Made by a program: the position numbers and the translations under genes
In this document: in pieces, positions 2,111 to 63,289 of the stretch
Layout of the letters: each line of letters opens with the position of its first letter
Numbering within the stretch: position 1 is the stretch's first letter
The notes under the pieces: model-generated
The model's input: only the letters and a program-made list of their open reading frames with translations
Database searches by the model: none
What the model was told of the DNA's origin: nothing
Assembly (NCBI GenBank): GCA_010093705.1
Contig: MU006102.1
Span: 575,280-639,279 of the forward strand
From: Patellaria atrata CBS 101060
Lineage: Eukaryota; Ascomycota; Dothideomycetes; Patellariales; Patellariaceae
DNA length: 64,000 bases
Reading direction: 5' to 3'

Positions 2111-2413
2111 ATTGAGGTGAGTTGAGTTGACTTGCACTGGCTATGATTTGAATCGAGTCATATACTCCACCACCAAATGCACGGTACTAACTCATATCAC
2201 TCAACCACACCAACACATAAAAGAATTGATTCATTCTGTCAAACTGGGTATATCCACCAATTACACCATCGCCCTTCCTCTTCCCGTGTTTTCCCATGCC
2301 CCGAAAATGTCTCCTACCTCTTAGCCGTGCAGACAGTACAAGGAACGCCATCTAAAGAAAGCCGTCACACCAAATCCTTTTCACCTCCACCCTCAACCCC
2401 CCAACCCATACTC
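2111..2413. other. Spacer between satellite and membrane-protein gene
   Basis: This is a very pyrimidine-rich stretch on the plus strand, especially from 2370 on. It holds the 3' flank of the minus-strand gene ending at 2414. A plus-strand open frame over 2177-2779 follows the C-rich composition and runs antisense to that gene, so it is not called. Confidence 0.5.
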
Positions 2414-3879
2414 CTAATCCAACAACCCTCTCCCCAACCAATCCCTCTTTCCCCCTTCCCTCTCCCTCTCCCTCATCCCTACCATCTCTTCCTCAGCCCC
2501 ACCTTCCCTCATATTCTCCCTACGTTCCCTCCTCCCAAGCACACCCGCAAACTCCCTCACCCTCAGCGCAGCCCACCACTGCGCGCCCGTGACACCAATA
2601 ACAACCATTCCAAAAAAAGCATACAGAGTCCACAAGATGAGGGAGCACGTCTGCGGCGTCCAGTGGTCTGCGAGCCAGGCATCGATGAGAGCGTCTTCGT
2701 CTGCAGAGGGAGTGGAGAGGTCGATGCTATGGGCCTGGTGACGGGCGATTTTGGGAGAGAGCGGAAGTTGAGCGGATGAGGGGCTCGAGGGTGCGGAGAC
2801 GCAGAGGGAGGAGGGGAGGGAGAGAGTTAGGAGGAGAAGGGCGAGACGGGGAAGGGTGGAGAGGAGGGAGTCGAGAAGGAGGTGGTTTGCAAAGATTGTG
2901 GTTGGAGTTGAGGAGGCCTGGGAGGGTTAGTTGTTGGAAATGCCGAGATGTGCAAAATGGGGAACGAAGGGGCGGTGACGATGAGGAGTGGATGCTAGAG
3001 ATGGGGGATGATGCTGGGGGACTGAGAGTAGGGATGCCCACCTTCAAAGCTCCCCAGAGTCCAAGAATGCAAGCTCCGCAGGCAAAGCCTGAGTATAGTC
3101 TGAAGCTATAGCCGGTCCTCCATTCGTTTGGGAGGTACTGAGTCAAATATGCAGAAACGGCGTTGACGATGAAGGCGATGACGCTGACGCAGATAGTGAG
3201 ACGCCTGCTTTCTATCAGTAAAGGGCCACTTCACCAACGCGTGGATATCATGAGAGATGGCACTGGGAAAGGGTTGACGATAAATCGTGGTTCGTAGTAA
3301 TGTGGAGCTTTCTCTCAAAACGCCACGGTGGAGCTCTCCAACTACCTCTACAATGCTGATTGAACTTGGGTGAGAGGTAACAACTATATCGTACATACCT
3401 TCCTCGATACATAGAACAGCCCATTCTATAACTCTTCTGAGTATTCCCCTTAGAGCCTCTTCAATCGCGTCTCCGTCGTCTTCTCTCGTGTTATATAAAT
3501 TTTGCCTGCCCGCAGCAGCTCGTCCGGTAACGTCCCACTCGAGCTCCGAAAGCTCTCAGAACAACAACGAAGACCGAAGCTCAAGTAAGATCGAACGAGC
3601 GCAAGGAATAAATGCTTGCGTGAGTTCCGGCTCACTATTTGGTTCTCGAACTTCTCTCGCGAAAGAGATATGTTTGAGAGTTTGCTAGAAGGTCCGGCCA
3701 GCAGCGGGTTTTCAATGTTATAGAATGAGGTGGTAAAGTTATTGATGACCTCAGGGTGATTTTGTAAGCTTGAGACTAGTCTGGACTAGTTAAGGACTAG
3801 TTACCCGACAGCATCCGCCACGGCCGATCATCCGGGGCACGCCAATCAAAGTGGCGTTTACTCACCATACCGTAAACAT
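2414..3879 (-). CDS. Multi-spanning membrane protein, unknown function, five exons
   Basis: I reconstruct this from frame and splice signals. Minus-strand exons are 3879-3866, 3768-3636, 3552-3399, 3211-3042 and 2917-2414, with phases agreeing throughout, giving about 324 residues. Junction signals include GTGAGT and GTATGT donors and an acceptor after CTGATAG. The N-terminal third is soluble (motif NPLLAGPSSKLSNISLSREK). The rest has about four hydrophobic segments: LTICVSVIAFIVNAVSAY, LYSGFACGACILGLWGAL, a Leu-rich one in the last exon, and LYAFFGMVVIGVTGAQWW. The tail is rich in Arg and Glu. The first exon is uncertain: an ATG at 3905 joined to a neighbouring acceptor also keeps the frame. 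I do not recognise the family. The internal exons read like a real conserved protein, and the location is probably an internal membrane. The last exon shows a sharp base-skew switch near 2635. Confidence 0.6.
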
Positions 3880-4370
3880 CGAAGAATCAACTCAAATTGT
3901 AACATTTCGCTATCGTATTCACGAATTCTATGGGTTCCGCTCACCGCATTTCGATATTGTTAACTTGTTATCAAGGAAACACGTTTTACGTTCATATCTC
4001 CATTGGACCTCAGTCAGTGTAATAGGTTCTTTCAACTGGCGTCAAATGTTTATGGGCGCTTGATGTTTCACGACTCATGAGAGGCTCAATTTCTAAGCGT
4101 CAAGTAGTCAAGCCAAGAAGCGAAACGCGTGTTCTGATAATGCTGCGCAAGTGTTGCGTTATTGGTAGTCATTATTGCTGGTTTTATCAGAGCCAATTCT
4201 CAAAATAATGTAGTATGAAACGAGAGAGTGAGGTCATCGGGAAAAGATTCAGAATAAGTCAGTTTGATTCAGTTTTGCTCAGGTGTTGAAATGGGTTCCC
4301 CGATACGGATGTATCCACTTAACCTAAGGTATCTACGAGCTTGGTTCCACTAAGGTATTCGTATAGACTT
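3880..4370. other. Intergenic spacer, promoter side of the membrane protein
   Basis: This lies between two minus-strand genes. It has mixed composition, no open frame with credible coding character and no obvious repeat. It probably holds the promoter of the membrane-protein gene and the 3' UTR of the fusion gene is just to its right. The plus-strand frame at 3851-4063 has no supporting features. Confidence 0.4.
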
Positions 4371-6855: not shown

Positions 6856-8320
6856 ATGTTACAGCGGACCCTTACACGCCATTCGAAGAGAGTCTTTGAT
6901 TCAAGTAATGTTTGTGTCTTTTGCAATGCGTTATACTCTTTCGATCGATCATGGCGCCGCTCATATGTAGCTCGAAAAGCTCCCAAAGCCCCCTCAGTTA
7001 TAAAAGCACGAATCGACCGAGGAGCTACTCAGACCCCCTCGAGAACTCAGGATCATTCAGTCGCATTCCCGTCGCCTCAAGATGTCGAGATGTTCAAGTC
7101 AGCTTCAACCCAGGGCTTTCTCCCGATTAACCACTCGGACGCTATACTGTTTCTGAAGAGACTTGTGGAGTGGAAGACCATGCCATCTGAACAAGAACTA
7201 AAGAGAGCATGTAAAGGTATACATAGTATCTCTTATCAAACTTTCAGAGTACCAAGTTCTAAATCGTCCAGAAACGAATGTCCCTCTCAATGCGCTTACC
7301 CCTCTCGCCCACATCATCCTCTCGAACTCTGGAAAGATAAGGCGTGATATAGGCACACGTCTGATTAATAGTGCGTCCGCAGCCGGTAGTCCAGAAGCAA
7401 CCCTCTATATCATGCGCGCTGCGCTTGTCGCCTCCGATTTCGAAAGCCCCCACGCAAAATCCGCTTTCCCACGTCTCCTTTCACTGACCCAGGAAAACAA
7501 CATCGATGCTGTCTCCCTCCTCGGCCAGATCTACATGAAACAAAACAAACCCGCCGAAGCCCAAGAACTCCTCTCAAAAGCGATGACGCTTAAATCCTCT
7601 CCTATCTCTTCCCCCACCACCATCCCATCCCCAGACCCCACACTCTCCACAGGCCCAAACCCTAGCACAACCCTCGGTCTCCTCCACCTCCAGCAAAAGG
7701 ACATCGAATCCGCCCTCGAAACATTCAAAACAGCCGCCCACACCCACGACGACCCAAACGCCTTCTACCACCTCTCAACCCTCGAACCCAGATACTCCAC
7801 CCGCTGGATCGACTACACCCTCCGCGCCGCCTCCTCCGGCCACCGCACCGCCGCCTACAACCTCGGCATCTTCTACGCGCTCCCTCTCCACGAAGTCCTT
7901 CAGCGCCTCGACTCCAGCGGCCGCAACGAGCTCGCCCGCTTTGAGAAATGGTGGGATGGCCTGCTGGGGCAGAGGGAGTCGAGGAGGAAGAAATGGGCCT
8001 TGGAGTGGTGGTATACCGCGGCGATGGATGGGCATGCGCCGGCTTTCTTAGTGTATTTGAAGGCGTTGTGGGAGGGTGAGGGAAGAGAGGAATGTGTTAC
8101 GGCGCTTGCGGGGTTGAGTGTGTTGGTAAGGGACGAAGGAGGTGGGTTTGCGGCACAGTGGCCGGATGTGGTGGAGGAAGCGAGACGGTATTTGAGAGCG
8201 TGGGAGCGGGAGTGGGAGGAATGGCTGGAGGAGGACGGTGGTAGGAAGGCGAGGGAGAAGTTAGAGGCGTTGAGAGGGAGGAGTGAGTTGGGTTTCAGGG
8301 CGTGGTTGTACAATATCTAA
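6856..8320 (+). CDS. TPR/Sel1-like repeat protein, probably mitochondrial
   Basis: Two exons, 6856-7216 and 7248-8320, give 477 residues; the junction makes ELKRACKEYQVLNRPETNV. The N terminus (MLQRTLTRHSKRVF) is basic and lacks acidic residues, like a mitochondrial presequence. The middle has helical repeats in the TPR/Sel1 style: AVSLLGQIYMKQNKPAEAQELL, LGLLHLQQKDIESALETFK, DPNAFYHLSTLE, AAYNLGIFYALP and WWYTAAMDGHAPAFLVYL. The C terminus is Glu/Arg-rich. The required intron is only 31 nt (GTATAC...TTTCAG), unusually short. A branch/acceptor-like sequence overlaps the chosen ATG, so an upstream non-coding or coding exon cannot be excluded. It is convergent with the INO80F-type gene, 173 bp apart. 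The base composition flips from C-rich to G-rich near 7925. The molecular role is unknown; such repeats act as protein-binding scaffolds. Confidence 0.72.
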
Positions 8321-8493
8321 TGTATTATGAATACGATGATAAGTCGCCTATATGACCGCTAGTAAGCTTTTGAAATGTCCTCGTTCCCAGATTCACTCCC
8401 CCCAAACCCCAACGCCAAGCCGTATATCACTGTACAGAACCCCATCTTTGATCGTTTGCCGCGTATTGCACTTTCTCAATCATCAAATTCCCC

Positions 8494-9463
8494 CTACCGA
8501 TTCACGGCCGTAAAACCTAATCCGGCCTCCTCCATCTCCACTTCCCCCTGTCCACTCCTCGGCCTATCCTCATCCATCCTACTCCCACTTCCGTCCCCAT
8601 TCTCCCTCTCCCTTCCCTCAAACCCACTCTCAACAAACCGCGGCTCGCCCTCCAGCGGCTGATTCGGCAACGGCGCACCATTAGCCCCAGGATTGTACGC
8701 CGAAAACTGCAACTGCCTGCCTGGATCCGGGGACGTGTGAGCGGAGGAGAGCGGATTCGGGGGTAGGAGGTGAGCGGGCAGGGGCGGGGAAGCGTGGGTT
8801 GTGCTGGGTGCGTTGGGGATTGATTGCGAGGTTGGCGATTTGGGGCGGTGGGAGCGTTTGGAGCGGAGGGGCTTCTCCGTTGGCTGGGAGGGGTGTGCGT
8901 TAGGATCATAGATTATGATGTTGGTGGCGGTTGGCTGCTTGTAGTTGGTGGGCTGAACGTTTTTGGGGGAGGGGATGAGAGGGGTGATGAATTCGAAAAG
9001 GTGGGGAGGGGGAGGGAAGTGAATGCTGAGGGAAGAATACGGGATAGTTTGGGGAGAAATGGTGGGTAATTCGGGGAGATAAGGGGAAGGGTGAAAGAGG
9101 ATGAGGAAGGCGGCATACTGTAGGTGGTGGAGAGGTGCTCTTGTCTGACTCGTCGAGCTTCTCTTCCATGCGCTTTGTGAGCTGCTCAAGCAGGAACGCG
9201 CGCTCAAGGCGCATTTTTAGGATTGCGCGGTTCATGCGCGATTTCCGCAATCGGAGAGTGTCGTTGGTTTCTTCGACTTCGGCGATGCGACGCTTGAGCT
9301 CGGAACATTTGCGGCGGTACGCTTGCTCAACGGAGGGAGGGAGAGGGCGGTTTACTATTAGAACCTGTAAGCATATGATCGGTTTGGCGAGCGCAGCGCA
9401 AATCGATTTGGATCTCTCTTTGAGGAACTGGAGAATGTTGAGCTTACTTGGTTGATTTGGCAT
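8494..9463 (-). CDS. INO80 complex subunit F-like protein
   Basis: Exons are 9463-9448, 9354-9119 and 8883-8494, giving about 213 residues. The core, residues about 9-70, is a charged helix: PPSVEQAYRRKCSELKRRI, then DTLRLRKSRMNRAILKMRLERAFLLEQLTKRMEE. I recognise this as the INO80F-type helical domain of fungal Nhp10-like subunits, which bind the INO80 chromatin-remodelling complex. The second conserved block is EKPLRSKRSHRPKSP, followed by FSAYNPGANGAPLPNQP; the rest is low-complexity. The last intron (235 nt) ends in a good branch/acceptor, CCTAACGCACACCCCTCCCAG. The first intron's acceptor is less certain, which affects only two or three residues after MPNQP. Nuclear location is inferred. 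The gene spans a C-to-G skew switch near 8725. Confidence 0.72.
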
Positions 9464-13700: not shown

Positions 13701-15893
13701 TCAGACTACTGCTAAGCAAGCAGAAATGAACAAACGACTACGTGAGATCAATCAGCGGAGCATAGCAAAAGCTCAACTTACCAAAGCTGCCGCAAATCTG
13801 ACTGCTAACCGCAACAAAAATAAAACTGCCAATGCGGGAAGTAGCTCGTTGCCGAGTAGGCCTCCAAATGTCTCAATAGTTGGTGATGGTGTAAGTTTAC
13901 CGTCCGATATTGCGTAGCCGTGAGATGATACTAATATTCACAGACATCGAGTAATGCTATGCTGGATTCGGTAGCCATTCCATACAATGGTCCTGATCCT
14001 CGATTGCAAGGAAGGAAGCGGCTAGTATACGAAGATCAAGCCGTAAATACTAATAATCCCAAAAAGGTTGCCTTCCAAGATAACGTGCAACAAAACTCAA
14101 ATGAGAAGCAAACTGAAAGCCCTAATGGGAATCCTAGTGAGATCTCAAGCACGAAGCTGAATGAAAAAACCGATGGGGTCTCTAACAACGGACCAGACGA
14201 GAAGCTGGATCACCATGTAAGTGATTATGACAGTTTATTCGAAGAAGGCGAGATTGAAGAGGTAAGTCGAGACTCAATTTCACACGTTCTGCTGAGCTAA
14301 TTCCAAAAGGAACCCCAGAATCTAGCATCGATCAATGTCCAGGAGAAGATATCAGAAGGTAAGCAGAAGGGAATGGGTGTGTTCGATGAAATACTACATG
14401 ATAGAGGAGAAGCTAACTGTGAAGCGGGGGAAGGTGATCCAGTTCATTTAGGTTGGCTTAATCGCGCCAAAGAATTAACAGCAGCAGCACGTAACTCGCC
14501 AACAATGACACCACCGATGCGTGCCCCTACGGCTATGATGGACGTGAGGCCGCCAGTATCGAGCCAACCTGCCGCAGCTGGAATCATACCACCTCCACAA
14601 CAGAATTCTCTAATGCTACCTCCACTGCTAATAGCGCAAATCACAACAAGACTGGAGCATCTATCAGACGAAGATAAGTTTATTATCCACCACAGGGAAT
14701 CCGCCCAGGAGAAGAAGACATACCCACAGATGACGAAGCTCTTTGTCGACAAATTTGGGCATTTTCTATCTGAGGATCAGCTCAGAAGGAGATATATGAA
14801 GGCTAAAGAAAAGCTAGGTGAATCACCACGACAACAACAAGGGATAGTAAGCGACTTCTCAAGAGACCCGGTATTTAGCTGTTTCTCGACAAGAAGCGAG
14901 AGTCCCTTTTTGAGGTATAATTCAACCGTTCCTACAGCGGACGCTCCCATGATCACAGCTCAGAGCCAGACCCAGACCGATTCGCGAGAGGCCCGCCCGA
15001 CAACTGGTGGGAAGTCTATTAATTCGGAGGCATTGGAGGCTTATATCCGGGCTATTTTCGCTGAGCCGGACGAGGAACAGGGACTCACTGCGGAAGCTGG
15101 GACCCAAACTGAACCTGAATTGGAAGTTCAGGAGACCCGCGCGGAACGAGAGGACTCCCAATTCAGCGAAAGAGATTACCTCCAATGGGAATACTTCGTC
15201 AAGAGGCAAACATGGGCAACCGAGGATGAAATGGAGCATGACGGTGGTTGGGTTACCGTCGGCGGGAAACATTCCAGCCTCCAACAGGCCAATATCGCCG
15301 CCGGCCATGAGATAACCCGAGAGCGTAACGGGATCTGCATCGGCACTCACACCCGCAAATGGACATACGACACCGATAACGAAGGAATGGCAAACTACTA
15401 CGCCACCGACGGCGAAAACTGCATCCGCGTCAGAGTGGTGCGTACGCTCTGCACCCGCACTAGCGGTAACCCGCCCACCTCAAAAGCCGGCTGGCTCCCA
15501 CGAAACGTCTACGACATCCGTCGCCGCAGCACAATCAAGACCACCAAACCCGACGACGAAGACGATCTCTTCTCCGAGACGGAAAAGGAGACCGTCACAC
15601 TCGAAATCCTCGATGGCGGCTACCTCATCCTCGACGAGGCTAATCGCGAAGCAGCGAAGATGGTCATCGATATCAGGGTCCGTAAGGACTCCAAACGCAT
15701 GGATGATCAGATAGCACGCAGTGATATGCGAAAAGCGATGGAAAAAGCGAATGATGAGAGAGAGAAAAGCGGTGGAGCTTTTCGAGAAGAGTGGAATGTC
15801 GTGGTAAAAAAGAATGGAGAGCGGGCAAGGGAGGAGCGGAGGGAGGAAGTCTGGGTCCAGGCGGTCAAAATGAAAGGACCGAGAAATGTATGA
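10798..15893 (+). CDS. Large nuclear-looking protein with coiled coil and Myb-like segment
   Basis: Exons are 10798-13890, 13944-14261 and 14310-15893; introns are 53 and 48 nt with GTAAGT donors. The product is 1,664 residues. The first 740 residues are polar and disordered, with basic clusters (KATKRKRKENV). A Ser/Asp tract (SSSSSSSDDYSDDLQVV) precedes a long Ala/Glu/Lys coiled coil at about 777-930. In the third exon, about 1250-1308, the stretch LSDEDKFIIHHRES, then YPQMTKLFVDKFGHFLSEDQLRRRYMK, has the spacing of a Myb/SANT-like helix-turn-helix. Around 1420-1560 is a more globular region (DYLQWEYFVKRQTW, GGWVTVGGKHSS, GICIGTHTRKWTYDTD, GWLPRNVYDIRRRSTIKTTK). The tail is charged. I do not recognise the whole protein. 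A chromatin or transcription role is an inference from the Myb-like segment only. The start ATG was chosen because the frame closes upstream. Confidence 0.72.
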
Positions 15894-16869
15894 GGTACGG
15901 ATCTACGGTCGACCGGTATGATTTATGGGATGTAATTTAGGGGGAAATTCATCTTTTTGCGGATATGGTTGATTGGGTTCTTGATATTAATGATGGGATG
16001 ATCTTTATCTTGCAGATGGAAAGTGCCACCTATGGAATTGCTGAGGTGTAGGGTTGAAATCTGGTTCTAAAATTATATAGGGGAATCTTAATACTATTGG
16101 GCACTTGATACAGAATAGATGAGTTTGGTGCGCCTTTACACGTGTGAGGTGCATGTCTTCGAGTGGAAAGTCATATCATGATATATTCATGTTCGTTAAT
16201 TGCTGGAGAACAAAAGGAAGTACAAATAAGCTTCCACTAATGCGTGCAGTTAAACCTAGTTGGGGATAGATCGTACTGTACCACTGCTGTTTCTGTTCAA
16301 AACTGTTAAGAAACGAGCATAGAGCTGTGGTAAAAGTGAGTTGAATTGCTCTAGTTCTAGCTACGAGTAGACGAGAAGACATGCGTGAGCCAAGCCTCTC
16401 GGGCCGACCAATCTCCCTTACCGTGAGACCAGCGGTGCCTAGTCACTGACCGGTTAGTATACCGTTCCGTAACAAAAACAAAGTAACTTGCTGAAAGAGG
16501 AGAGTGACGATCCATGTATTCACATAAGAACAATAAGGTGAGAACAAGGTTCTTTTTATTCTACCATTGCATAAATTTAGTACTCATCATGCTTTTCATA
16601 ATCCTACTTTCTATAATACCTATAACCGAGCATGATTCTTGATAAACCATGATCATACCAACTGGTCCGCATTCCCAATAGACCTATAACGCCATCGCCA
16701 TGCGCAAAATGGGAGTGAGTGACAGTCCATAACCGAAACGCCGACAATTCTCAGTTCCCCTATCGTCATATCTCCACCCAAAGATGAATTAGGCGGCCGT
16801 CCAAAGTAAAGCGCATAACGCCGAAACCCAATGGCAAGTAGTCATTTCTCTAGTCCCTAGTCTATCACA
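15894..16869. other. Convergent 3' spacer
   Basis: This lies between the 3' ends of the Myb-like gene (plus) and the ubiquitin protease (minus). It is AT-rich and holds the two 3' UTRs. A 68-codon minus-strand frame at 16176-16382 has no family features and is not called. No repeat or RNA gene is seen. Confidence 0.4.
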
Positions 16870-34117: not shown

Positions 34118-37043
34118 ATGGCCGAGGCCCCGAAGAGCGGCTTACTAGACCTGGAAAAACAGTTGACTTGTTCGGTAAGTTGGCATCCAGCAATACTAGA
34201 GTGGACTTGGCGGACATGATACTTGAATTGGTGCTGTCATAGTACATTTCTGATAATTTTTTGGGATTGGGTCTGGTTACAGAGTTTGATTCGGTTGCTG
34301 ATATCTCCAGATATGCACTGAAATTCTATACCAACCCCTCACCCTCCTCAATTGTTTACACACATTCTGCGGGTCTTGCCTAAAACCATGGTTTGCTGAA
34401 CAAGCTTCGAACGCAAAAACTCCACACCCGTACACCTGCCCATCATGTCGCGCACCTGTACGGGAAGCGAGATCAAACGCTACGGTCACAACCCTCCTTG
34501 ACATGTTAAACCAAGCGAATCCCGACCGAGATAGGACGCAGGAAGAGAAGGATGATATGGACAGGATCTTTACCCGCGGGGAGAATATCTTACCTGAAGT
34601 TCAGCTAAGAGAAGATGATGAGGATGAAGAGGACCGCAGGATCATGGACCAGGTTCGGGAGTTGAGTTTACAGGAAGTGGGTATGGGAGAGGGTAACTTA
34701 AGCGCACCAAGGGCAAGGAGAAGCCGGGAAAGGAGCAGGGATAGAAGAGAAAGAGAGGGAAGGTCTCAGGGAGCAAGAAGTTCAAGTCATACTAGGGGCA
34801 GCGAAGTACAGCACACTACGTACCGGACGCCTATTCCAGCTCGCCAGATAGAGCATCAATCAAGTCTGAGATCCTTGCTTAGCTCGTCGGAGATTGATTC
34901 CCAACAGATAGAAGAAGAGATCTTGAGACAGATAATGGAAGAAGGGTTGCTAGATGGTATTGATCTTACAAATATTGATGTCTCTCAAGAGGATGAGATT
35001 AGTGAAAGGATTGCTGAAGCTTACCGCAGAAGGATGAGGGAGAGGGAGAGGGAGAGAGAGCAACGTAGGGAAAGAGATCGGTCTAGGTCTCGAGAAGAAC
35101 GTCGAAGCAGCAGTAATCCGTCATCAAGCCAAACCCGTCCATCAGAGCATCTAAGACGGCCGCAGAGTGAGAGGAACGAGTCCGCCCCGGTTCAACAGAC
35201 AGGATCCTCTCGTCCACCAGTCTCTCGCCCACATTTGCTCGAAGCTGTTAATGATGATGGACGAACCCGTCATCGCAGATCCTCTAGTCAAGGGAGTTCG
35301 CGCTCTGCTCAGGTGGCGAGATCTCGCGATCTGACAATCGGCACTGAGAGGCCTGCGGCTCGTTCCTCTACTGATCTTTCCGGTCGGTCACAGACCGGAC
35401 AAGTTAGCTTAGACAGAGGACCTCGGATACCAATTCAAGATCGTAGAAATACAGATCCAAATCACCGTGTTATAGAGCAATGGCGCAGTGCTGCAGCGAA
35501 TGTCACTTCAAATTCAAACCCGTCATCCCCTAGAAGAGTCGTCTTTGATACTACGACGGAAAGCCCACCCGCTCTTGCAACGCCAATTCCTCCCTCACTA
35601 AGGACTCCAAACTCTCCTCGCCTGAAGCCAGACACATCTGGAGCACGGCAATTCCGCTCTCCGTCGTCACTTCCGTCTCAAACTCCAGAAACTCGTTCAC
35701 GTGAGCATAGCAGTCAACCTTCTTCGTCAACCGCTCTTATTCGACCTCAAATGTTTCCCGAACCGTCAATCACCTGCGACCGGTGTGGTAAAACTCATAT
35801 TGAATACGAACTACATTATAACTGCCCCAAGGACCAAGGTGGAAACTACAACTTATGCATACGATGCTACCGTCAGGGTAAAGGCTGCCTCAACTGGTTC
35901 GGCTTCGGGCACGCCGCAAAACATAGATTCGAGCAGCGTGCACCTCCCAATGGATATCCTCCGAGTCAAGATCAACCGCACGTGCTCACCGGTCATCGAT
36001 ATCTCCGACCGAGAGAAGATGCAACCCGTTCTACCTCTCCCGACACCAACGTCCAACTTACAGAGGACGATCCCTCAAAACGCCTCGAAGCAGGTGTCTT
36101 CTGCTCTCTATGTTTCGCGTTCGCAAACGCATGCTTCTGGCGCTGCGACTTCTGCAACGAAGGCGAATGGGGTTTCTGCAACACTTGCGTCAACCAAGAC
36201 CGACACTGCACACACCCCCTACTCCCCCTCTCCCACATCTCCAACAGCAAAAGCGGTCGCACCCAAACCTCAGACACCACTTCCACACTTGCATCCTCAA
36301 CATCACTGACCTCCCCAACCACTCAGCTCATCCCCAAAGTCGCATCCGTCCTCCGTGGCCCCACCACCATCCCCTACGCAAACACCCTCTTCCGCCCCCT
36401 CACCTTCAGCACCACCTGCGATCTCTGCAAGTACCCCATTCCCCCTTCCCACACGCGCTACCACTGCCCCCAATGCAACGACGGCGATTACGATATCTGC
36501 ACGCCCTGCTACACCGGCCTCGTCCTCGACCGCCGCATCGCCCCGCACAACGGCCACCAAGGCTGGCGCCGCTGCCTCAAGGGCCACCGCATGGTAGTCG
36601 TCGGGTTCGAGGACCGCAACGGCGGCCAGAGGCGCGTGGTGAGCAGGGACTTGGTCGGCGGCTGGGCGCTGAAGGAAGACGATGCTGCCATCGCTGCTTC
36701 GTCGACCGGCGCGGGGAATGTCGCGAACCCGGATCAGGCGCCTAACTGGTCCTGGCGCGATGCAGATGGTACGGTGCGTAAGGCCCGTTCGTCCTCCATG
36801 CATCCTCTCTCCCCGTCTTCGTCTGCCGTTCCCCGTTTCCCACCTGACGGCGGCGTTGGGCTCAGGTTGCTAGCGCTGTGGAGTTATTGGCCTGCTGAGG
36901 GGGTCACGGATGAGTTGGCCTTTCCGAAGGGCGCGGAGATCACTGAGGCGGAGGATATCAATGGGGATTGGTTCTGGGGGGTTTATTGTGGGAGTAAGGG
37001 GTTGTTGCCGGGTGGTTATGGGAGGGTTGTTGGGGGATGGTAA
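34118..37043 (+). CDS. RING-ZZ-SH3 domain ubiquitin ligase candidate
   Basis: Exons are 34118-34174 and 34311-37043 (intron 136 nt, GTAAGT donor), giving 929 residues. The splice falls inside the RING finger: LTCS joined to ICTEILYQPLTLLNCLHTF, CGSCLKPWF and YTCPSCRAPV, a complete C3HC4 set at residues 18-68. The middle is a disordered Arg/Ser/Glu region. Then come three zinc-binding stretches: CDRCGKTHIEYELHYNC with CIRC at about 505-545, CSLCFAFANACFWRCDFC at about 613-655, and CDLCKYPIPPSHTRYHC with CTPC and HNGH at about 721-770, which looks like a ZZ domain. The end, about 869-925, is SH3-like (LRLLALWSYWPAEGVTDEL ... GDWFWGVYCGSKGLLPGGYG). RING proteins recruit E2 enzymes; the SH3 and ZZ parts should choose partners. 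The substrate is unknown. From 36180 the gene becomes very GC-rich and flips from C to G excess near 36590, which opens several false frames. Confidence 0.88.
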
Positions 37044-37492: not shown

Positions 37493-38528
<1,036 letters not shown>

Positions 38529-40288: not shown

Positions 40289-41648
40289 TTTTAGCTCTTA
40301 ATTACCATACTGTGTGAAATTAGTGTAGTCATCCTCCTGTAGATCATTCACGTCGTCACTACTTAAGTGTGCATGGTATTCTTAACTACGACCATAAGGT
40401 ATAACAAATCTAAAATATCAGTATCACCACCCGTCACGACCTCGATGACCCCTCTCCATCCATCTCCTCCTAATCTATATCCCCTCGATCCGTCTCCCCA
40501 AAACACCTAAACCAACCTCATATCCCAACTTCCTCCCCCCAATTCCAGCAACATACCATGGTCGGTAAGTGATCAACAAGGTAGCTTTGATCCTGTAGTC
40601 CAATATCTTCTTTCCTCTCCTTTCCTCTCCAGTCACATTTTCGTATGCTGTATTTTCCATGTTACAAACCCCAAGGTCAAGAGTTTGAGCCGACTTGTCA
40701 CTGGAATTAAGACGGTAGAAACTGTCCACTCGGTCTTTCTGGACCCCGGGGTCTCTGGTTTTTAGATTTTCTTGGGTCTTTTTGTTTTAAGCTTTCTTGG
40801 GTTCCTAGGGGGATGATGTGAGAGGGTTGAAGAACCTTGCGTAAGAGGAGAGGTAGTCTTTTGTGCTTCTATGTCCCTCGACGTGGACTTCAAGATATCG
40901 CTTTGCATACATTCCTCTTAAGTCTGGTGGGCTTCATACATACTTCCGACTCCTGAGTTCCCAACCATACCCCCCATTCCCCAGTTTCCCCAGCAACGCC
41001 ATCATCAACATGAAGATTCGACCTCATCCACCCATCCACCCTCTCACGAGCAGCAGCACAAACCACCCCCACCCCCATCGTCTGTAAAGAAAACTTCCAT
41101 CCCTCCATATCACCCGCAGGACCCAACTCTCAGGCACGATACGAGACGGATGGTTGACGGCGAGCTGAGGGTGTACTGTATGAGAGGTGGGGGATACGCG
41201 TTCGGAGCAGGGGGGGGTTAGGTAAGGAAGGGATTGTGATGTAGTTAGGAGGGCGTAGATATGATCTGAAGCACTGGACTGGACTTTTCGATTTAGAATG
41301 GTTGAAACGACGTTGTTATCTATAAGACATATAGTTTGTTTTGGAAGACTTGTGGAAATATAACTGATGGATTTAGGAAGGCCATAATACATCGTATACC
41401 CCTTCAGCCACCCGTCCATCTAACATGCGTATCTGGTAAGTATTCCCATCCGATCATTCGAAAAAAAATCCAATCGTGGATTGGACTTCCACTCTGTGAT
41501 CGGATAGGAGCACTTCCAAAATACACTTGCCATCTGGACCATAGGGGCCGAAAAGGTACATGATCCCCGATAACCCGGCAAAGGTAGGGCTAAATGTGAA
41601 TTCCAACCGAAGTGGTCACACAGCTGAAAAGGAAGTGACACTCCCCTC
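40289..41648. other. Convergent spacer with skewed tracts and a nested palindrome
   Basis: This lies between the 3' ends of TLG2 (plus) and the EBP homologue (minus). C-rich sequence at 40430-40560 and 40960-41110 is followed by G-rich sequence at 41130-41230, the same order as in nearby genes. A nested inverted repeat lies at 41448-41505. Open frames at 40475-40729, 40890-41126 and 41024-41419 (minus) have no recognisable features. Confidence 0.4.
41448..41505. repeat. Nested inverted repeat
   Basis: Outer arms ATCCGATCA (41448-41456) and TGATCGGAT (41497-41505) are perfect reverse complements. Inside them TCCAATC and GATTGGA (41469-41475, 41479-41485) form a second perfect stem with a three-base loop. 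It may be a transcript 3'-end structure or a chance fold. Confidence 0.5.
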
Positions 41649-42735
41649 CTACAACGTCTTCTTATCAACGGTTCCAGCGACGCCAGAGGGTGAGGTAGCA
41701 GTCACCGAGCCGTAGACCTCGTAGAGAATCCAGAGCGGGATCCAGACCCAGAGGGTGTTAAAGAAAAAAAGGTAGACCCATCTGTTCACAAGATTAGTGG
41801 AAGGAACACAAAAAGCACCGTAGATAGAAGCGTGAGAGGACACTTCGGGGAGGAAAGCACCAACAAGAACATCCAATTCGAGGTATCCAGATTCGGGCTC
41901 CCGCTCAACCACTCGGGGCAGAACGTCATAAACCCTAAAACACACACATCAGCACGTTCCCAAACCACAGACCCACCCTTTTATTGTAAAAGGAGTATAC
42001 GGTTCACTCACCTCCATACAACTCCCCCGTCGCAAGCACCGCCATCCAAAACGCCACCCGTCCCCCAAACACCCTCTTCAACCCCATATCCCCCTTCCCC
42101 CTCACCATTCCCTCCTCGCCCTCCCCCCTCGCAAGCAAAACACAAACATACGCCGCCAACGGCGCGCCCACAAAAACCGTCAATAACTCCAAACTCACAA
42201 CCCCCAAATCAACTCCCCCCCACCTCCGATCCGCAAGCGCATACTCCTGCCACAGCCTTGACAAAACACCCGTCCCATACGCGGCCCCATACACGCTCTC
42301 CCTATCGTTCAGGAAAAACACATCCGCGGGCGTGAAGCTGATCCTATGCGGATCTGTGGGGGGTATAACGCCGCTGGGCGTCTTGGCGTGGATGTGCAAA
42401 GGCACGGAGACGAAAAAGCAGTTCCAGAGAAAGGAGCCTTCGAAGATGAGGTGGATGAGCGCGTCGAAGAGGTGCCAGATAAAGAGGAACCGCGTTTTCT
42501 TCGAGGAGGGGGTGGGGAGGGAGAGCTTGGAGACGAGGAGAGCGATGAGGAGGACGGCGAGGACGGCGAGGAGGGAGAGGATGGTTGTTTGGTCGATCTT
42601 GGGCCCGGAGGAGGGGGTTATGCTGGTTGAGGGGATCATTGTTGCTGGATGGAATGGGGCCTTAGGGGTTGGCGTGGATGGTTGATAGGGAGGAATTGAG
42701 AGCGCTGGCAGATTCTTAGGGAGCCGTGATTTCAA
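41649..42735 (-). CDS. Emopamil-binding protein (EXPERA domain) homologue
   Basis: Exons are 42735-42012, 41934-41865 and 41781-41649; introns are 77 and 83 nt. The first ATG gives 308 residues; the ATG at 42639 (MIPSTSITPSSG) gives 276 and looks more natural. Family landmarks are HLFDALIHLIFEGSFLWNCF in the first conserved membrane segment, FFLNDRESVYGAAYG, LWQEYALADRRWGG, GELYGGFMTFCPEWLSG and NLDTSNWMFLWVYLFFFN. At least five hydrophobic segments are visible. EBP proteins are sterol delta8-delta7 isomerases in the ER of animals and plants. Filamentous fungi make ergosterol with ERG2, so this copy's substrate is not certain. The second intron uses a GTTGGT donor, needed to keep the conserved NW...WVYL spacing. 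The first exon spans a C-to-G skew switch near 42340. Confidence 0.88.
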
Positions 42736-43543: not shown

Positions 43544-43548
43544 AATTA

Positions 43549-47521: not shown

Positions 47522-47566
47522 ACCTGCAAAAGACCTGCAAGACCTGCAAGACCTGCAAGACCCGCA
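47522..47566. repeat. 9-bp ACCTGCAAG tandem repeat
   Basis: Roughly four and a half copies of ACCTGCAAG, the first slightly altered, lie in the upstream region of the PP1 subunit gene. It is in the likely 5' leader and is not translated. Confidence 0.75.
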
Positions 47567-53308: not shown

Positions 53309-53345
53309 CAAATAAACAAGCAAACAAACAAACAAGCAAACACAC
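53309..53345. repeat. AAAC/AAGC simple repeat
   Basis: A run of AAACAAAC and AAACAAGC units, an ordinary microsatellite. Confidence 0.7.
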
Positions 53346-54804
53346 CCTCAATTTATCGTTCATAATTTTGTCTAGAATTTCTCGCACCCCTCCGCCGTTG
53401 GCGCCAACACCCTCTCCGCCCGCCAAGCGCTTGTCTCGATAAGACGATACAAATGCTCGACTTCGGCGGATATACGTACAGTTTTTCTCGTACGATATCA
53501 ATTATTTGAGAAGAACAATAATGGAATTTTGGAAATATAATTTAAGAGATCCTTTTCCTATTGTATTGCTGGCGAATTTTCTGTTCTATCAAATTATTAT
53601 TTCTCATGCCAATGTCTTCCATTTTGTCGCATATTGTACTGTCCTTCGTATTACGTTATCACTTCGGTTTTTTCGCGGCGGCGAAATAGCCTAGCTGAGA
53701 TAAGGTAAGGTAGGGCGGAACCGGTTTCCTACTGTAACAAGGTCCTTCCGTTCCGTACCTGTTCGAATATCGCGATTCGCGATCACGTACATAGTTCTCT
53801 TTGAAAGTTTTCAAATATCACTTTCATGCTACACTCTTTAGGTTTGGTGTCGAGAGCCCTTCACCGCTCCCCCAACTTCCCTAAATACACAAAACGTCCC
53901 TATGCTGGGCTTCATCTCGATCTCAATCTCAGATATGCAGTAGTACGGTGGGCAAATGCACGTCCTTACCTTACCATCCCCTACCTTCATCCCAACCTAA
54001 GCTTCAGATTCACAGAGTTCCGGTACTCCTCCACCGCACCGATGCAAAGATGCCCAATCCCGCTCGGCGCCTCCCGACGCAGGTGCGGACGAAAGTGGAA
54101 CTGAAATGAAGACGAATGCAAACTGCACGCTTCCTCTATATGAGTTTGAATTTGGAGCGCGGCTGGGAGGGGAGAGGGGGGGGCCAAATTAATTGTGGAG
54201 CGGAAGGGGTAAGAATAGAAATAAAAGTGGAGCGCGTCTGCATGGCTCAAGGGCTCGTGAAATATGGGTAGATGAGGTACCCACGTGCGTGCAAGTTTAG
54301 GGATGGGTCTGCAGTTGGCTGCAGCTTTGTCGTTTTGAGGTTCGAGGTAAGATCTTGGATGGATATTTGCAGTTGGAGGGGATTTGACGCGATTGTGGAC
54401 GTGGGTCACTCTAGCGATGTCTGCTCAGCTAAGCGGGAAGTAAATTGATATTTCACGTGCGCATACTGTCGACTGCACCATGCTGACGATAAACGAGATT
54501 AATAGGCCGTGGTACGAGTCTATCTGAAAAAGTGGAAGTAGTATTTTGGCTGCACGGCCAGGGCGAAGAAAGACATTTGAAGAGACAAGCAAAGAATATC
54601 GTCGTTTGAGGTATCGAGAGAGGTAAAGATCGTCCGGATATAAAAAGATACCTACTTGGCATATGAGGAATTTGAGAGACAGTGTCCATATTCGTGCAGT
54701 GGAATCCTAATCATCACTTTACATTAGGTATATGCAGTGTCACTTCCAGCACTCTGGAAGACGGTCGTGCGGTTTTTGACAGATGATAGACGAGAGCGGC
54801 ATGT

Positions 54805-57292: not shown

Positions 57293-57327
57293 GTTATAGA
57301 AAATAAGAGAAATATATTATATTATTA
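57293..57327. repeat. AT-rich direct repeat, left copy
   Basis: The sequence TATAGAAAATAAGAGAAATATATTATATTATT (shown here only as its pattern, TATAGAAAATAAG then AAATATATTATATTATT) recurs at 58508-58541 with one substitution, on the other side of the assembly gap. It directly adjoins the candidate element start. Confidence 0.6.
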
Positions 57328-57332
57328 GATAA

Positions 57333-58458: not shown

Positions 58459-58507
58459 ATAATTATATAATTAAAAGTTTATTAAAACTTTTTTTTTTTA
58501 GCTATTA

Positions 58508-58541
58508 AGATATAGAAAATAAGAAAAATATATTATATTAT
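58508..58541. repeat. AT-rich direct repeat, right copy
   Basis: Nearly identical to 57293-57327, in the same orientation. It is followed by more AT-rich sequence up to the BolA gene. Confidence 0.6.
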
Positions 58542-58797
58542 TTAATAAGAACTTTATCCTATTTAAATAAAGATAAGTGCTCGTGATTACTAATATAATA
58601 ACTAATCTATAGCTTAACCCGTATTCCTATAGCGTCATCAGAGTTTCCAACGACAATGAAATAGTACGCGTGAATGGAGCCATCATCACCAAGGCTTGTA
58701 CATATCACAACATCAGAGTATATACATGTAGGCAATCAAAAAAGTATAGCAAAGAGAATTAACAATCTAATCACTGCTATGGCTTCACTTGTAGAAA

Positions 58798-59729: not shown

Positions 59730-60736
59730 ATGCCCAATGAGAACCGAACCGACCCAGCGGTTGCACTCTACAGAGTTGTGGAGTTGAACGCACACCACTT
59801 GGCCCCATGTTTCTCTGTTGAAGAGGTCTCCCCCTTACAACTCATGTTCCCATCATTGTCAACCCATGTAACTCTAAATGAACAACATAAACAACCAATC
59901 GACCAAGATAACCCATCTTCACCCCTAATTACGCACAAGAGACCCTTCATGCCTTCCCAGTCCGGAATCTCTTCGCCCTCTGGATACAGACCCATGTTTC
60001 CCGGGTTGACCGGCCAGTTGAGCCGTAACATCAAGCGCAGACGCGCTCTCGAAGACGATGGAGATGCAGATGATGAGGGAGAGATTCCAGTACTTCCTTA
60101 TTCGAACCCTGATCCCAGTTCTGTTTCAAGCAGTTCAAAGCCCGCTTCACCGAAACGGAAACGTGGGCGGCCTCGTAAGAAATCCCAAACTCCATCTGCA
60201 AAAGAATACAGAACCACTGCAGATACCAAATTTGTCGTTACCGGTCCCCAACTGAGCACCGATAGCTCTTCTCAGATAGACACTCTACCCAAACGTAGCT
60301 CTGGCCGCTCTAGGAAGGTCCTCTTCAACCCGCTACCGGAAGACTCCACCGCACAGCGAGAACCCTATCCACTGTTTTTGAACTCAGTAGCATCAACCCC
60401 AACTCAACCGCAGCACCTCCACCAAAGCGCAGCCGTGGCCATCCCCGTAAAGACGTGCCTCCTTATGCAAATCAGACATCTACACCATCCACCATGGAAG
60501 CAACCCCAGCTCCATCAGAACTAGCAACCTTTCCCTTTTCTTCTTCTTCTCCTCCCCCCTACTCCCTCATTTCTCCTTCCCAACCCTCCAGAAGCGACTC
60601 AGGCTCATCACCTCCTTCCAATTCCGACTCACCCGGCTACACCAGTTCTTCATCCGAACCCCACAGTCCCGATTATTCCGGCTCCGGCTCCTCTCAGTCT
60701 TCCAATCTTGACTTTCTCGTCTATACAGCTCATTAG
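59730..60736 (+). CDS. AT-hook protein with a frame conflict
   Basis: From the ATG at 59730 one frame runs to 60524. It contains NIKRRRALEDD, a clear AT-hook (SPKRKRGRPRKKSQT, 60145-60187) and a weaker one (PKRSSGRSRK). A third AT-hook-like motif (PKRSRGHPRKDV, about 60423-60460) lies in a different frame that continues Ser/Pro-rich to a stop at 60736. The two frames could be joined by removing 29 bases (GTAAAGACG to AAATCAG, about 60447-60475), a very short intron that would also remove part of the third motif. Otherwise the gene has a frameshift or the assembly has an indel. AT-hooks bind the minor groove of AT-rich DNA, so the protein is probably nuclear. The start may be later (MPSQSGISSPSGYRPMFPG). 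Confidence 0.5.
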
Positions 60737-60989
60737 GACAGGATGGAGCTCATGTCTGGTCATGATGGGGTGAGCCCAACCGCTCTTGTTTATGCCGCAT
60801 CCTGAGCCGAGGGAGAGATTGGTGGTTCGGCCTTTACCGCTGGGAAGTGCGATTGTTGTTGTCGAAAACGAGGGCGAGAAGGGAATGAAGGGTATGGAGG
60901 GAGAGGTGGTGCTGGGTGGAGAATGAGAGGAGGATGAACTAGATGAGGGGCATGTGGATACTGGTGGGTAGAGAGATTGGATTAGGCGT

Positions 60990-61207
60990 GATGGGGTTTG
61001 GACGAGGAGGGTAGAGGATGTGGAGGATAGGGCGCAGGAGGAGGATGAGGAGGTCGAGGATGAGGGGGAAGAAGACGAGGAGGAAGAAGACTGGGGTTAT
61101 TATGGGGATCAGTAGTATCAGGCACATGATTATACATATGAGCAGTTAGCGCCATCATCTCTAGATCATATACCCATGGTGCAAATGGCGATCCTTCCAT
61201 TCTCATA
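60990..61207 (+). pseudogene. Acidic open stretch downstream of the AT-hook gene
   Basis: A plus-strand frame reads RRVEDVEDRAQEEDEEVEDE, then EEDWGYYGDQ, a stop (TAG), then YQAHDYTYEQLAPSSLDHIP and on to a stop near 61207. It could be the eroded end of the AT-hook protein or an unspliced last exon, but G-rich DNA gives acidic frames easily. The non-repetitive piece after the stop is the only real argument for former coding. Confidence 0.2.
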
Positions 61208-61961
61208 ACATGGGATTGAACTCATTTTGCAGGACAGCGACGCGGATAAGGTGAAGAGGTGGGGTGTAAATGAGCGGGAGAGAGATTAGGAATTAGGATT
61301 ATTAGAAGACCAGAAGTGAAGGAGCAAATTAATACCGACCTTGGGCGAATGTTTGTTTAGACTACGTGTCTTTTTGATATAGCGTTTGGTGACACTGTGG
61401 GTGCTGATGATCTATTTGTCTTGTCTAATGGTACGTGGTAATTTCTAATGAGACAATCCAAAAACTACGCATATGATCAAATTCCTTCCCTTTCGCTGGG
61501 TTTGCCATAGTTCTATTATCCCGTTTCATGAGGGCTTCGATTTCCTTTATCTTCCTGTTGTCTAAAAAGCAAAAGGAAAGCGGTCCACTGAGACCCAGCC
61601 GAGGATAGCAACAGAATAGATCTACAACTCGAAAAAAGTTGCACACAGCGCCCTCATCCCTTCTCCCTTTCCCCGCTAGGTAAAATATGCAAGTTAACTA
61701 AAGCCCTCGGTAAGACAAGATTAGGTTATCAGATGCTTGTTGTTGTATTATAAGCAGATCCTTTACTACATAAGCGCAATCCTTTGATTACTTTTGAAAA
61801 TATGATAAGGAGGTACTGGAACTAACAAGGTTGTGAAAAAGGAGGCCAAGAGGTTCTTCAAAGGGGATATATGAGGAGAATAAGGAGTAATAGTGTTATT
61901 TGATGTCTGTTAGCTATCGATGTCTTTTTTGACGCAACAAGGAGTCACCCCGAGTGGATTA
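61208..61961. other. Convergent spacer before acetate kinase
   Basis: This is AT-rich, holding the 3' flanks of the AT-hook gene (plus) and acetate kinase (minus). The minus frame at 61425-61646 has no family features. Confidence 0.4.
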
Positions 61962-63289
61962 CTAAATACTGAGAAATTGGTATCCCTTGTCCATCTCCCA
62001 TGACCTCTGCACACACCCCCTAGCCATTTCCAATTGCTCATCCGTACGACAGACAAACACCTTCTTCCCTATTTCCACCACTCTCTGCTTAGACACGTCC
62101 GCATGCTTGTTTCTCTCTTCGTCGAGATCAAACCCCATGCACCTGAGCTTCTTTCCAACCTCTTTTCTTAGGTCAATACCTTTCTCTCCGATTCCTCCCG
62201 CGAAGACAAGACCATCCACTTTCCCCTCCAATTTCACGAAATAGGCTCCCACATACCCAGCCACCCGATCCACAAACAGGTCAAACGCAATCCGGCATCC
62301 CTCATCAATCTCCCGGTTCGCAGAGATATGGCCAAAATCGGTAGTACTAGCTAAGGCCTTCCACCCGGACTCCTTGTTCAGGATCTGCTCCGCCTGCGTG
62401 ATATGCAAATCTTTAGTTGCGGATCTTGAAGGGGCGCCGGCGGAATGCGTATAATGAAACACCAAACTAGGATCGATATCCCCACTGCGAGTCGCGCCAG
62501 GTAATCCCCCTAGTGGAGTCAATCCCATGGAAGTATCAATGCTCTGACCATTACCAATGGCACAGGCGGATGCGCCAGAGCCTAGGTGAAGGGCTATAAA
62601 GGAGGTTTTTGATGGAGCCTTGTTGAGGTGAGAGGAGAAAGAAGATAGAATGGAGGCGTAAGAGAGCCCGTGGAAACCGTATTTGCGGAGTTTATTCTTA
62701 GACGCTATGGTGGGAGAAATGGCGTAGGTCCGCGTGGAAGCGGGGAGAGTGCTGTGGAAGGAGGTGTCAAAGAATGCGAGGTTGGTGGTGTTAGGAATGG
62801 CCTTACGCGAGGAGCGGATGATAGCGAGTGCTGAGGCATTATGTCTATATATGATTGATCAGCTTGTGAAGGGTTCGAACGGTCTTTCAGATGCACTTAC
62901 AAAGGAGCAAGGTCAGAGAGTTTCTCGATATGCTCATAAGTGTCCTCGTTAAGTACTTTGGCTGTGTTGTAGTCACCTCCATGTACAACTCTGTGGCATG
63001 CGTATGCTGTGTTGTCTCTGTCTGACAGCTCTGGCAGGCCCTCATCCTCTTCCAAATGCTTTAGAATGTAGTTGAAAGCATCGTCCTGGGATTCAATATC
63101 GCTGAGCTCTTTTCCCTTGATTTTCTCCGGACCTCTATTGTATTCAAAAGTTGTTGGTGGTGCTGTCAATCCATTTATTTCCACAACAGCAAGCTCTTGC
63201 GGGTCTTCGGATTTACTACGTGCTTTGTAAACAGAGACCTTAACCGATGATGAACCAGCATTGATGGAGAGGATGATCTTATTCTCCAT
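61962..63289 (-). CDS. Acetate kinase
   Basis: Exons are 63289-62901 and 62844-61962 (intron 56 nt, GTAAGT donor), giving 423 residues, close to the family's 400. The start MENKIILSINAGSSSVKVSV is preferred to an in-frame ATG at 63322, because the family begins just before the NAGSSS phosphate-binding motif. Other signatures are ACHRVVHGGDYN with the active-site Arg, FFDTSFHSTLP, YGFHGLSYA, LHLGSGASACAIGNGQS, GLPGATRSGDIDP with the second Arg, and FAGGIGEKGIDLR with the catalytic Glu. It interconverts acetyl phosphate plus ADP with acetate plus ATP. In fungi its usual partner is phosphoketolase, which is not in this window. Cytosolic location is likely, as no targeting signal is seen. Confidence 0.96.

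What the first reader, a model, noticed from the sequence alone, without database searches (positions are those of the whole stretch)
2371..62830. Repeated C-to-G skew switches in GC-rich patches, mostly at gene 3' ends
At least nine GC-rich patches start C-rich and end G-rich when read 5' to 3', with a switch point near 2635, 7925, 8725, 15660, 36590, 41130, 42340, 54095, 60740, and a weaker one near 62540. Because the order is the same on either strand, it cannot be explained by coding strand: genes on both strands show it and so do two non-coding patches. In genes it appears as C-ending codons giving way to G-ending codons. I noticed no equally strong G-to-C patch. A local process that is symmetric about a point would fit, such as initiation of replication, break repair or biased gene conversion with strand-asymmetric mutation.
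Basis: partly seen in the sequence, partly recalled or inferred. Interest (0 to 1): 0.75.

Follow-up and report, generated by a model that had tools for sequence, protein, structure and literature searches.

The report
Mirror-image C-to-G patches near gene ends
In this stretch of what looks like a fungal genome, short patches lying mostly in the last few hundred bases of genes flip from C-rich to G-rich, as if some DNA process keeps starting at one spot and marks the two strands in mirror image; the flip is real and not a codon effect, but its cause cannot be settled from one sequence.

Summary
All ten places show a C-rich to G-rich switch (likelihood ratios 30-174); pooled, it reaches about 400 bp each way and is mirror-symmetric. 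A skew-blind test links GC-richness to C-to-G switching (z about 7 for 200-400 bp arms; two E. coli controls between -0.84 and 0.99; no fungal control was available). Shuffling synonymous codons does not reproduce it in 5 of 6 patch genes tested, and all three codon positions shift. Two corrections: strong G-to-C switches are equally numerous (14 and 14), though the GC-rich ones are outer edges of patches; and the pattern is gene-linked: 8 of 10 switches are genic, 7 of 10 lie 200-700 bp before a stop codon (11% of the window; range chosen afterwards). The known kind is the C-to-G skew along coding strands of unicellular fungi (McLean and Tirosh 2011). Here it comes as local, GC-raising, mirror-symmetric patches in 8 of 16 recognised genes. 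My best reading is recurrent strand-polarised repair or gene conversion from fixed zones (0.4); transcription-phase bias is nearly as likely (0.33). One genome cannot decide.

The parts
2286..2985 (.). Patch 1: C-rich arm 2286-2635, switch 2636 (2625-2639), G-rich arm 2636-2985; overlaps the 3' end of a minus-strand ORF (stop 2414) with a C-terminal membrane-like segment (judged by eye)
7593..8292 (.). Patch 2: switch 7943 (7937-7945) inside the TPR-repeat gene (+, 6856-8320), 377 bp before its stop
8379..9078 (.). Patch 3: switch 8729 (8722-8730) inside the INO80F-domain gene (-, 9463-8494), 235 bp before its stop
15371..16070 (.). Patch 4: switch 15721 (15633-15740) at the 3' end of a 1661-aa gene model (+, 10798-15893), 172 bp before its stop
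36211..36910 (.). Patch 5: switch 36561 (36544-36581) in the ZZ zinc-finger gene (+, 34503-37043), 482 bp before its stop
40793..41492 (.). Patch 6: switch 41143 (41125-41152) in the intergenic stretch between convergent SNARE/syntaxin-like (+, stop 40288) and EXPERA/EBP (-, stop 41649) genes; GC 0.49
41976..42675 (.). Patch 7: switch 42326 (42307-42329) in exon 1 of the EXPERA/EBP gene (-, about 42639-41649, later exons read by eye), 677 bp before its stop
53732..54431 (.). Patch 8: switch 54082 (54074-54142), no gene recognised nearby
60459..61158 (.). Patch 9: switch 60809 (60732-60811) near the 3' end of a gene with AT-hook-like motifs (Pfam score below cut-off; +, from 59730; last exon and stop about 61115 read by eye)
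62235..62934 (.). Patch 10 (weak): switch 62585 (62555-62591) in the acetate kinase gene (-, 63289-61962), 623 bp before its stop

Best explanation
Each patch is the compositional scar of a DNA transaction that keeps starting in a fixed zone (at most about 130 bp wide when the patches are pooled), mostly inside a gene near its 3' end, and spreads 300-400 bp both ways. On each side, the strand running 5' to 3' away from the zone is driven toward G. Most likely this is recombinational repair: in canonical break repair, heteroduplex on each side pairs the broken molecule's 3'-ended strand (pointing to the break) with an outward strand carrying donor information. A conversion bias with two parts, G or C over A or T, and G on the outward strand over C, would give the raised GC, the mirror-image C-to-G switch and the near absence of AT skew. 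Shown: mirror geometry, arm length, outward-strand G preference at silent sites, link to gene 3' ends. Inferred: that breaks or gene conversion are the cause, and why G beats C on the outward strand (possibly because C:C mismatches are poorly repaired while G:G are repaired, recalled, or because gaps on displaced single strands are filled by a C-inserting polymerase).
For: Mirror symmetry and decay over 300-400 bp. Pooled switch width: logistic scale 30 bp best, a step worse by 9.7 and a scale of 60 bp by 13.7 log units; patch by patch the best scale runs from 0.5 to 60 bp, eight of ten allow a step, and the pooled width rests mainly on patches 1 and 9. Silent-site log preferences on the outward strand: G over C 1.31 (gene bootstrap 0.83-1.96), GC over AT 1.16 (0.86-1.44), T over A 0.33 (-0.04 to 0.82), 623 sites in seven genes (the sites were chosen in skewed patches, so the first figure is inflated). 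Codon positions 1 and 2 move too, as expected of a strong non-adaptive drive. Fewer G runs than composition predicts, no general hairpin excess (mean z -0.8, z below -2 in 3 of 10), no shared exact 5-7-mer at the centres, Rfam 0 hits at the gathering threshold.
Against: No break, recombination or polymorphism data exist for this organism here, and the organism is not identified. Human break-repair mutations are C>N and A>N on the forward strand on the side where it is resected (left), the reverse complement on the other (PMC7615360, passages and a figure legend); that would give the opposite switch, so simple mutagenesis of resected strands does not fit here. In a mouse single-strand-annealing assay mismatch type had little influence on repair (PMC9001825, abstract and passages), against a mismatch-type bias. 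The centres are the most GC-rich part, unlike AT-rich nucleosome-free promoter hotspots known in yeast (recalled). Strong linkage to gene 3' ends and little signal between genes fit a transcription-linked cause at least as well.
Confidence: 0.4

Rival explanations
1. It is the strand bias of transcription phases already described in fungi: the coding strand becomes C-rich early and G-rich late, through mutation or repair tied to RNA polymerase II initiation, elongation and termination, or through antisense polymerases entering the 3' part of the gene. A patch is a strong case of it.
For: Same sign, nearly flat AT skew, effect at fourfold sites and at first and second positions as in McLean and Tirosh 2011 (PMC3315797, abstract and parts 1-2 of 4 of the main section). 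8 of 10 switches genic; 7 of 10 lie 200-700 bp before a stop codon, 10.9% of the window (binomial 1.7e-5; range chosen after seeing the data; 14 stops used, the two found later left out, which would enlarge the zone slightly). Five of six convergent gene pairs carry at least one patch and 0 of 3 tandem 3' ends do (tabulated by eye; too few to test; patches 1 and 8 have no recognised downstream neighbour). G-to-C switches, the reverse, lie at 24946, 38729 and 47318 near inferred gene 5' ends, as a C bias at transcript starts predicts.
Against: Sense transcription alone gives no reason for equal mirror-image arms with raised GC about a point. Half of the 16 recognised genes show no patch: last 300 nt mean skew +0.44 over 6 patch-gene models (EXPERA exon 1 only; +0.40 over the other five) against +0.01 over 6 without. 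Patches 41143 and 54082 lie outside recognised genes. PMC3315797 reports GC skew negatively correlated with GC content, the reverse of here.
Confidence: 0.33
2. The switch points are replication origins; the leading strand gains G and initiation is locally mutagenic.
For: Sign matches the upward skew jump at origins; raised GC with base-composition skews is reported at human constitutive origins (PMC9645720, passages).
Against: Arms end within about 400 bp whereas forks run for kilobases; T-over-A on the outward strand is not significant (0.33, -0.04 to 0.82); ten origins in 64 kb, mostly inside exons, would be extraordinary.
Confidence: 0.07
3. Codon choice, amino-acid content or selection on RNA or DNA structure makes the patches.
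For: First and second positions also shift, so amino-acid content changes along these proteins; the weak acetate kinase switch is not beyond synonymous shuffling (p 0.084). G-quadruplex-type patterns are concentrated in the arms: a relaxed pattern in 18 of 20 outward arms, and 29 overlapping strict matches there against 34 in the whole window on both strands (not compared with a null model, and expected in part from composition). Three of ten patches fold better than shuffled arms (z below -2).
Against: 0 of 1000 synonymous shuffles reach the observed switch in 5 of 6 patch genes tested (patches 1 and 9 not tested for want of full gene models). Both twofold classes move: NNY C fraction 0.47 background, 0.72-0.85 before, 0.21-0.33 after the switch; NNR G fraction 0.48, then 0.42-0.53 and 0.75-0.80. 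G runs are rarer than composition predicts.
Confidence: 0.05

Closest known systems
Opposite GC skews at 5' and 3' ends of genes in unicellular fungi (McLean and Tirosh 2011, PMC3315797)
   Same: Coding strand goes from C to G; AT skew nearly constant; fourfold and non-degenerate positions both affected; 3' part G-biased
   Different: There an average over genes, with roughly linear end effects in species such as Candida albicans, and skew negatively correlated with GC; here local, GC-raising, mirror-symmetric patches of about 700 bp in 8 of 16 recognised genes, plus two outside recognised genes
Nucleotide skew that changes polarity at the centres of mouse recombination hotspots (Smagulova 2011, recalled; the paper is not held) and strand-asymmetric mutation at human hotspots (PMC7615360, passages)
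   Same: Point-symmetric strand asymmetry over hundreds of bp about a narrow zone; C>G and A>G type changes
   Different: Human mutation polarity is opposite; no motif found here; no break map
Skew jumps at replication origins (PMC9645720, passages)
   Same: Sign; local GC rise
   Different: Arms very short; no clear AT component; sites mostly inside exons
GC-biased gene conversion (PMC3845650, abstract and passages; PMC3020949, start of abstract in a search listing only)
   Same: Local GC rise; conversion tracts shorten with distance from the break
   Different: The standard model as I know it has no strand polarity; PMC3845650 states that GC content is independent of the skews

Membership tests
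Fungal intragenic GC skew (McLean and Tirosh) | Coding strand G-biased at the 3' end of genes | tested here: met
   last 300 nt +0.44 over 6 patch-gene models (for EXPERA exon 1 only, not the gene end; +0.40 over the other five) but +0.01 over 6 others: met only where a patch lies
Fungal intragenic GC skew (McLean and Tirosh) | Coding strand C-biased at the 5' end | tested here: inconclusive
   first 300 nt of each model mean -0.09 in both groups, range -0.49 to +0.39; several models may lack their true first exon
Fungal intragenic GC skew (McLean and Tirosh) | Nearly constant AT skew; effect at fourfold and at other positions | tested here: met
Fungal intragenic GC skew (McLean and Tirosh) | Gradual, near-linear change at the two gene ends (as stated for Candida albicans) | tested here: not met
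   switch within about 130 bp when pooled, eight of ten patches compatible with a step; this is why I file it as a variant, not a plain member
Meiotic break hotspot | Breaks or crossovers mapped at the centres | not testable with these tools
   no data; organism unidentified
Meiotic break hotspot | Polarity of strand-asymmetric mutation as in human hotspots | tested here: not met
   observed left arm gains C and loses G, against C>N and A>N on the resected forward strand in PMC7615360
Meiotic break hotspot (PRDM9 type) | Shared central sequence motif | tested here: not met
   no exact k-mer of 5-7 within 60 bp beyond shifted controls; degenerate motifs not tested
Replication origin skew jump | Upward GC and TA skew jump with arms of kilobases | tested here: not met
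   GC sign met, arms about 400 bp, T over A not significant
GC-biased gene conversion | Transmission or fixation bias toward GC | not testable with these tools
   needs polymorphism or tetrads; only the composition is seen

The most novel reading that the evidence does not exclude
The patches are fossil records of strand-polarised gene conversion: repair favours G on the outward, donor-derived strand, so one genome sequence shows to within tens of bases where recombination has started for long evolutionary times. Because a C-to-G patch reads the same on both strands, patches sitting inside genes would by themselves create the average 'C at 5', G at 3'' skew of fungal genes, which would then not be a transcription effect at all.
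Probability: 0.28. Interest if true: 0.85.

Novelty: new variant of a known kind. Interest (0 to 1): 0.6.

Why it matters
The origin of opposite GC skews at the two ends of fungal genes was left open between mutation and adaptation in the 2011 paper that described them. These patches suggest that the average may hide a mixture: some genes with a sharp, mirror-symmetric switch and others with none. That is directly testable by aligning genes on the switch rather than on start and stop codons. If the switches mark recombination starts, they would give a fine map from sequence alone and a strand-polarised form of biased gene conversion. They also bend protein composition, so they matter for reading codon usage and selection in such genomes.

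Tried and rejected
Rejected or empty: (1) Palindromes: in six of the ten patch regions examined, seven inverted-repeat pairs of 14-25 nt, 76-94% complementary, none in two of the six; too short to be the cause. (2) Hairpin selection: folding energy against 24 arm shuffles each gives mean z -0.8, with 3 of 10 below -2 and the rest between -1.39 and +1.28; not a general cause. (3) G-run selection: fewer G runs than composition predicts; G-quadruplex-type patterns are concentrated in the arms but were not tested against a null. (4) Shared centre motif: no exact 5-7-mer. (5) Known RNA genes: Rfam 0 at gathering threshold, tRNA 0. (6) Tandem repeats: short arrays touch patches 1, 7 and 9 but do not explain them. 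(7) Relatives: one scan each of viral contigs and genome contigs with the ubiquitin-protease protein gave no relative, so no second species could be compared; no fungal control sequence was available, only E. coli. (8) The correlation outside the ten patches is weak (z 1.72, 1.41 and 1.03, p 0.04, 0.08 and 0.17 for 200, 300 and 400 bp arms), so this is mainly a patch phenomenon. (9) Convergent-collision model: it suits convergent pairs and the reverse switch near promoters, but two patches 786 bp apart in the TPR/INO80F pair, with G-to-C between them, do not fit one meeting point.

Errors of mine corrected on the way: gene-finder run 35, and the locally corrected half of run 36, lost the patch genes; I used the uncorrected half of run 36 for the gene map. 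In one search the EXPERA/EBP and syntaxin reading frames were wrong; one search repeats them (EXPERA exon 1: 0 of 1000; syntaxin p 0.038). In one search two overlapping INO80F frames were both counted between 8909 and 9105; one search uses one model. One search used a gene map without the Pop3-like and isochorismatase genes found. In one search the 'last 300 nt' of the EXPERA gene is the end of exon 1.

In those listings (titles and abstract starts) I saw no paper describing local mirror-symmetric C-to-G patches in a fungus. A listed paper on nucleotide cost and skew in transcribed regions (PMC4844684) was not read.
Full report
What was given. The window is 64 kb of a eukaryote, most likely an ascomycete fungus: Pfam hits include DUF3517, DUF7928, EXPERA, an INO80F domain and a sub-threshold RNase P Pop3 match, and short introns are apparent; the assignment is my inference. 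GC is 46.6% counting 715 N as bases. No whole genome is held.

Checking the observation. Each patch individually prefers two segments to one (likelihood ratio 30-174). Without looking at skew, GC maxima show 7 of 12 switches above 0.4 in the C-to-G sense and none in the other with a 600-bp window; narrower windows are weaker (4 of 15 against 1, with 6 of 15 positive; 7 of 17 against 1, with 9 of 17 positive). Local GC correlates with the switch statistic far beyond circular shifts (z 5.4, 7.3, 7.3, 6.9, 5.1, 3.6 and 1.7 for arms of 100, 200, 300, 400, 600, 800 and 1200 bp). Two E. coli stretches give z between -0.84 and 0.99 with far smaller switches; no fungal control was available. Outside the ten patches the correlation is weak (z 1.0-1.7).

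Counted regardless of GC, strong switches of both kinds are equally many at threshold 0.6 with 250-bp arms (14 and 14); only the very strongest favour C-to-G (6 against 1 at threshold 1.0; 4 against 3 with 150-bp arms). Equality is partly forced, because each C-to-G patch has a G-to-C edge on either side. At GC 0.52 or more it is 9 against 4, and those 4 lie within 410 bp of a patch centre. GC at C-to-G switches is higher than at G-to-C ones (one-sided p 0.007). Three G-to-C switches more than 2 kb from any patch, at 24946, 38729 and 47318, lie near inferred gene 5' ends.

Anatomy. The pooled data prefer a smooth switch with logistic scale 30 bp (10-90% in about 130 bp) over a step (9.7 log units worse) or a scale of 60 bp (13.7 worse); but patch by patch the best scale varies from 0.5 to 60 bp, eight of ten allow a step, one (41143) excludes 20 bp or more, and the pooled width rests mainly on patches 1 and 9. 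Left and right arms are mirror images: the difference is at most 0.025 per base with SE 0.014-0.031. Read on the strand that runs 5' to 3' away from the centre, G is 0.40-0.43 in the first 300 bp against about 0.25 beyond 500 bp, C 0.13-0.17, A and T slightly down. At 623 fourfold silent sites in seven genes that strand is G 0.57, C 0.15, A 0.12, T 0.16 against a folded background of 0.20 for G and C and 0.30 for A and T. Expressed as log preferences this is G over C 1.31, GC over AT 1.16, and no significant T over A; the first is inflated by how the patches were chosen.

Not codon use. Twofold codons show both sides: C among NNY goes from 0.72-0.85 to 0.21-0.33 (background 0.47), G among NNR from 0.42-0.53 to 0.75-0.80 (background 0.48). 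Shuffling synonymous codons inside each gene never reached the observed switch in the TPR, INO80F, 1661-aa, ZZ and EXPERA genes (0 of 1000 each); acetate kinase gave 0.084; the genes of patches 1 and 9 were not tested. Of five genes without a patch, four gave p 0.3-0.8 and syntaxin 0.038. Skew at codon positions 1, 2 and 3 was -0.20, -0.48, -0.70 before and +0.51, +0.16, +0.50 after the switch, against +0.11, -0.20, +0.11 away (six genes). So protein sequence is bent too.

Linked to genes. With a gene map built from a simple gene finder, Pfam and reading by eye, 8 of 10 switches lie in genes, and 7 of 10 lie 200-700 bp before a stop codon, a zone that makes up 10.9% of the window (binomial 1.7e-5; the range was chosen after seeing the data, and two stops found later were not in the list). 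The GC-to-switch correlation is z 5.2 for genic positions and 0.3 for intergenic ones, or 2.1 at least 150 bp from genes. Six patch-gene models have mean skew +0.44 in their last 300 nt (+0.40 for the five that reach the gene end; the EXPERA model stops at exon 1); six without have +0.01; both groups have -0.09 in the first 300 nt of the model. Five of six convergent pairs carry a patch, none of three tandem 3' ends does; this is only a hint.

Mechanism. The geometry says that something starts in a zone and treats the outward-running strand differently from its partner for 300-400 bp. Three processes have the right sign: recombinational repair acting on the outward donor-derived strand or on displaced strands, transcription (divergent with G on the RNA-like strand, or convergent with C on it), and replication from an origin. 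Arms of 400 bp speak against origins. Raised GC and mirror symmetry speak for recombinational repair with biased conversion; gene 3' location and the fungal precedent speak for transcription. Mutation of resected 3' tails, as described at human hotspots (PMC7615360, passages read), would give the opposite sign and does not fit. My reason for G over C in heteroduplex (unequal repair of C:C and G:G) is recalled and inferential, and a mouse annealing assay found little effect of mismatch type (PMC9001825, abstract and passages).

What is known. McLean and Tirosh (PMC3315797; abstract and parts 1-2 of 4 of the main section read) found C at 5' and G at 3' ends of coding strands in most unicellular fungi, with nearly constant AT skew and effects at degenerate and other positions, and offered a mutational and an adaptive explanation. 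My window looks like that pattern broken into discrete events. Since a C-to-G patch has no strand, patches placed inside genes would give such an average without any role for transcription; this is the most useful idea to test, and it is inference, not shown. Marsolier-Kergoat 2013 (PMC3845650; abstract and passages) proposed mitotic conversion or dNTP pools for GC content in Candida, treating skew as separate. A human study of origins (PMC9645720, passages) reports GC rise and skews. A study of human transcription start sites (PMC12658150, passages) links mutation there to divergent transcription, R-loops and mitotic breaks, a reminder that the two main readings here can overlap. A mouse hotspot study with a skew that changes polarity at hotspot centres is recalled only (not held).

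Verdict. A real, strong and not codon-driven pattern; a new variant of a known fungal skew phenomenon; cause open between recombination-linked and transcription-linked processes, with a slight preference for the former.

Noticed in passing
window 1-2100: Degenerate arrays of roughly 18-26-bp units (ATTCGG/TTCGCTAATAGCTCTTA-like) with no clear genes, right beside patch 1; looks like a decayed minisatellite or subtelomere-like block.
   Followed up: no
window 10034-10181: Tandem array of 12-bp/36-bp units (TCGCTGACGATA-like), about 4 copies of 36 bp, between the INO80F gene and the 1661-aa gene.
   Followed up: no
window 24946, 38729, 47318: Strong G-to-C switches at moderate or low GC (0.43-0.50) near inferred gene 5' ends, the reverse of the patches; agrees with a C bias of coding strands at fungal transcript starts.
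   Followed up: partly
window 47400-58700: Long stretch where I recognised no gene (10 ORFs given to Pfam, one weak sub-threshold hit), holding a run of N near 57.6-58.5 kb and one of the two non-genic patches (54082).
   Followed up: partly
window 16870-24507: Large ubiquitin-specific protease (UCH and DUF3517 domains) of about 2,500 aa with few introns in the model and no patch at its 3' end although its convergent neighbour has one.
   Followed up: no
window 26133-26446: Convergent pair Pop3-like (+, sub-threshold Pfam match) and isochorismatase (-) with no patch: the one exception among six convergent pairs.
   Followed up: partly
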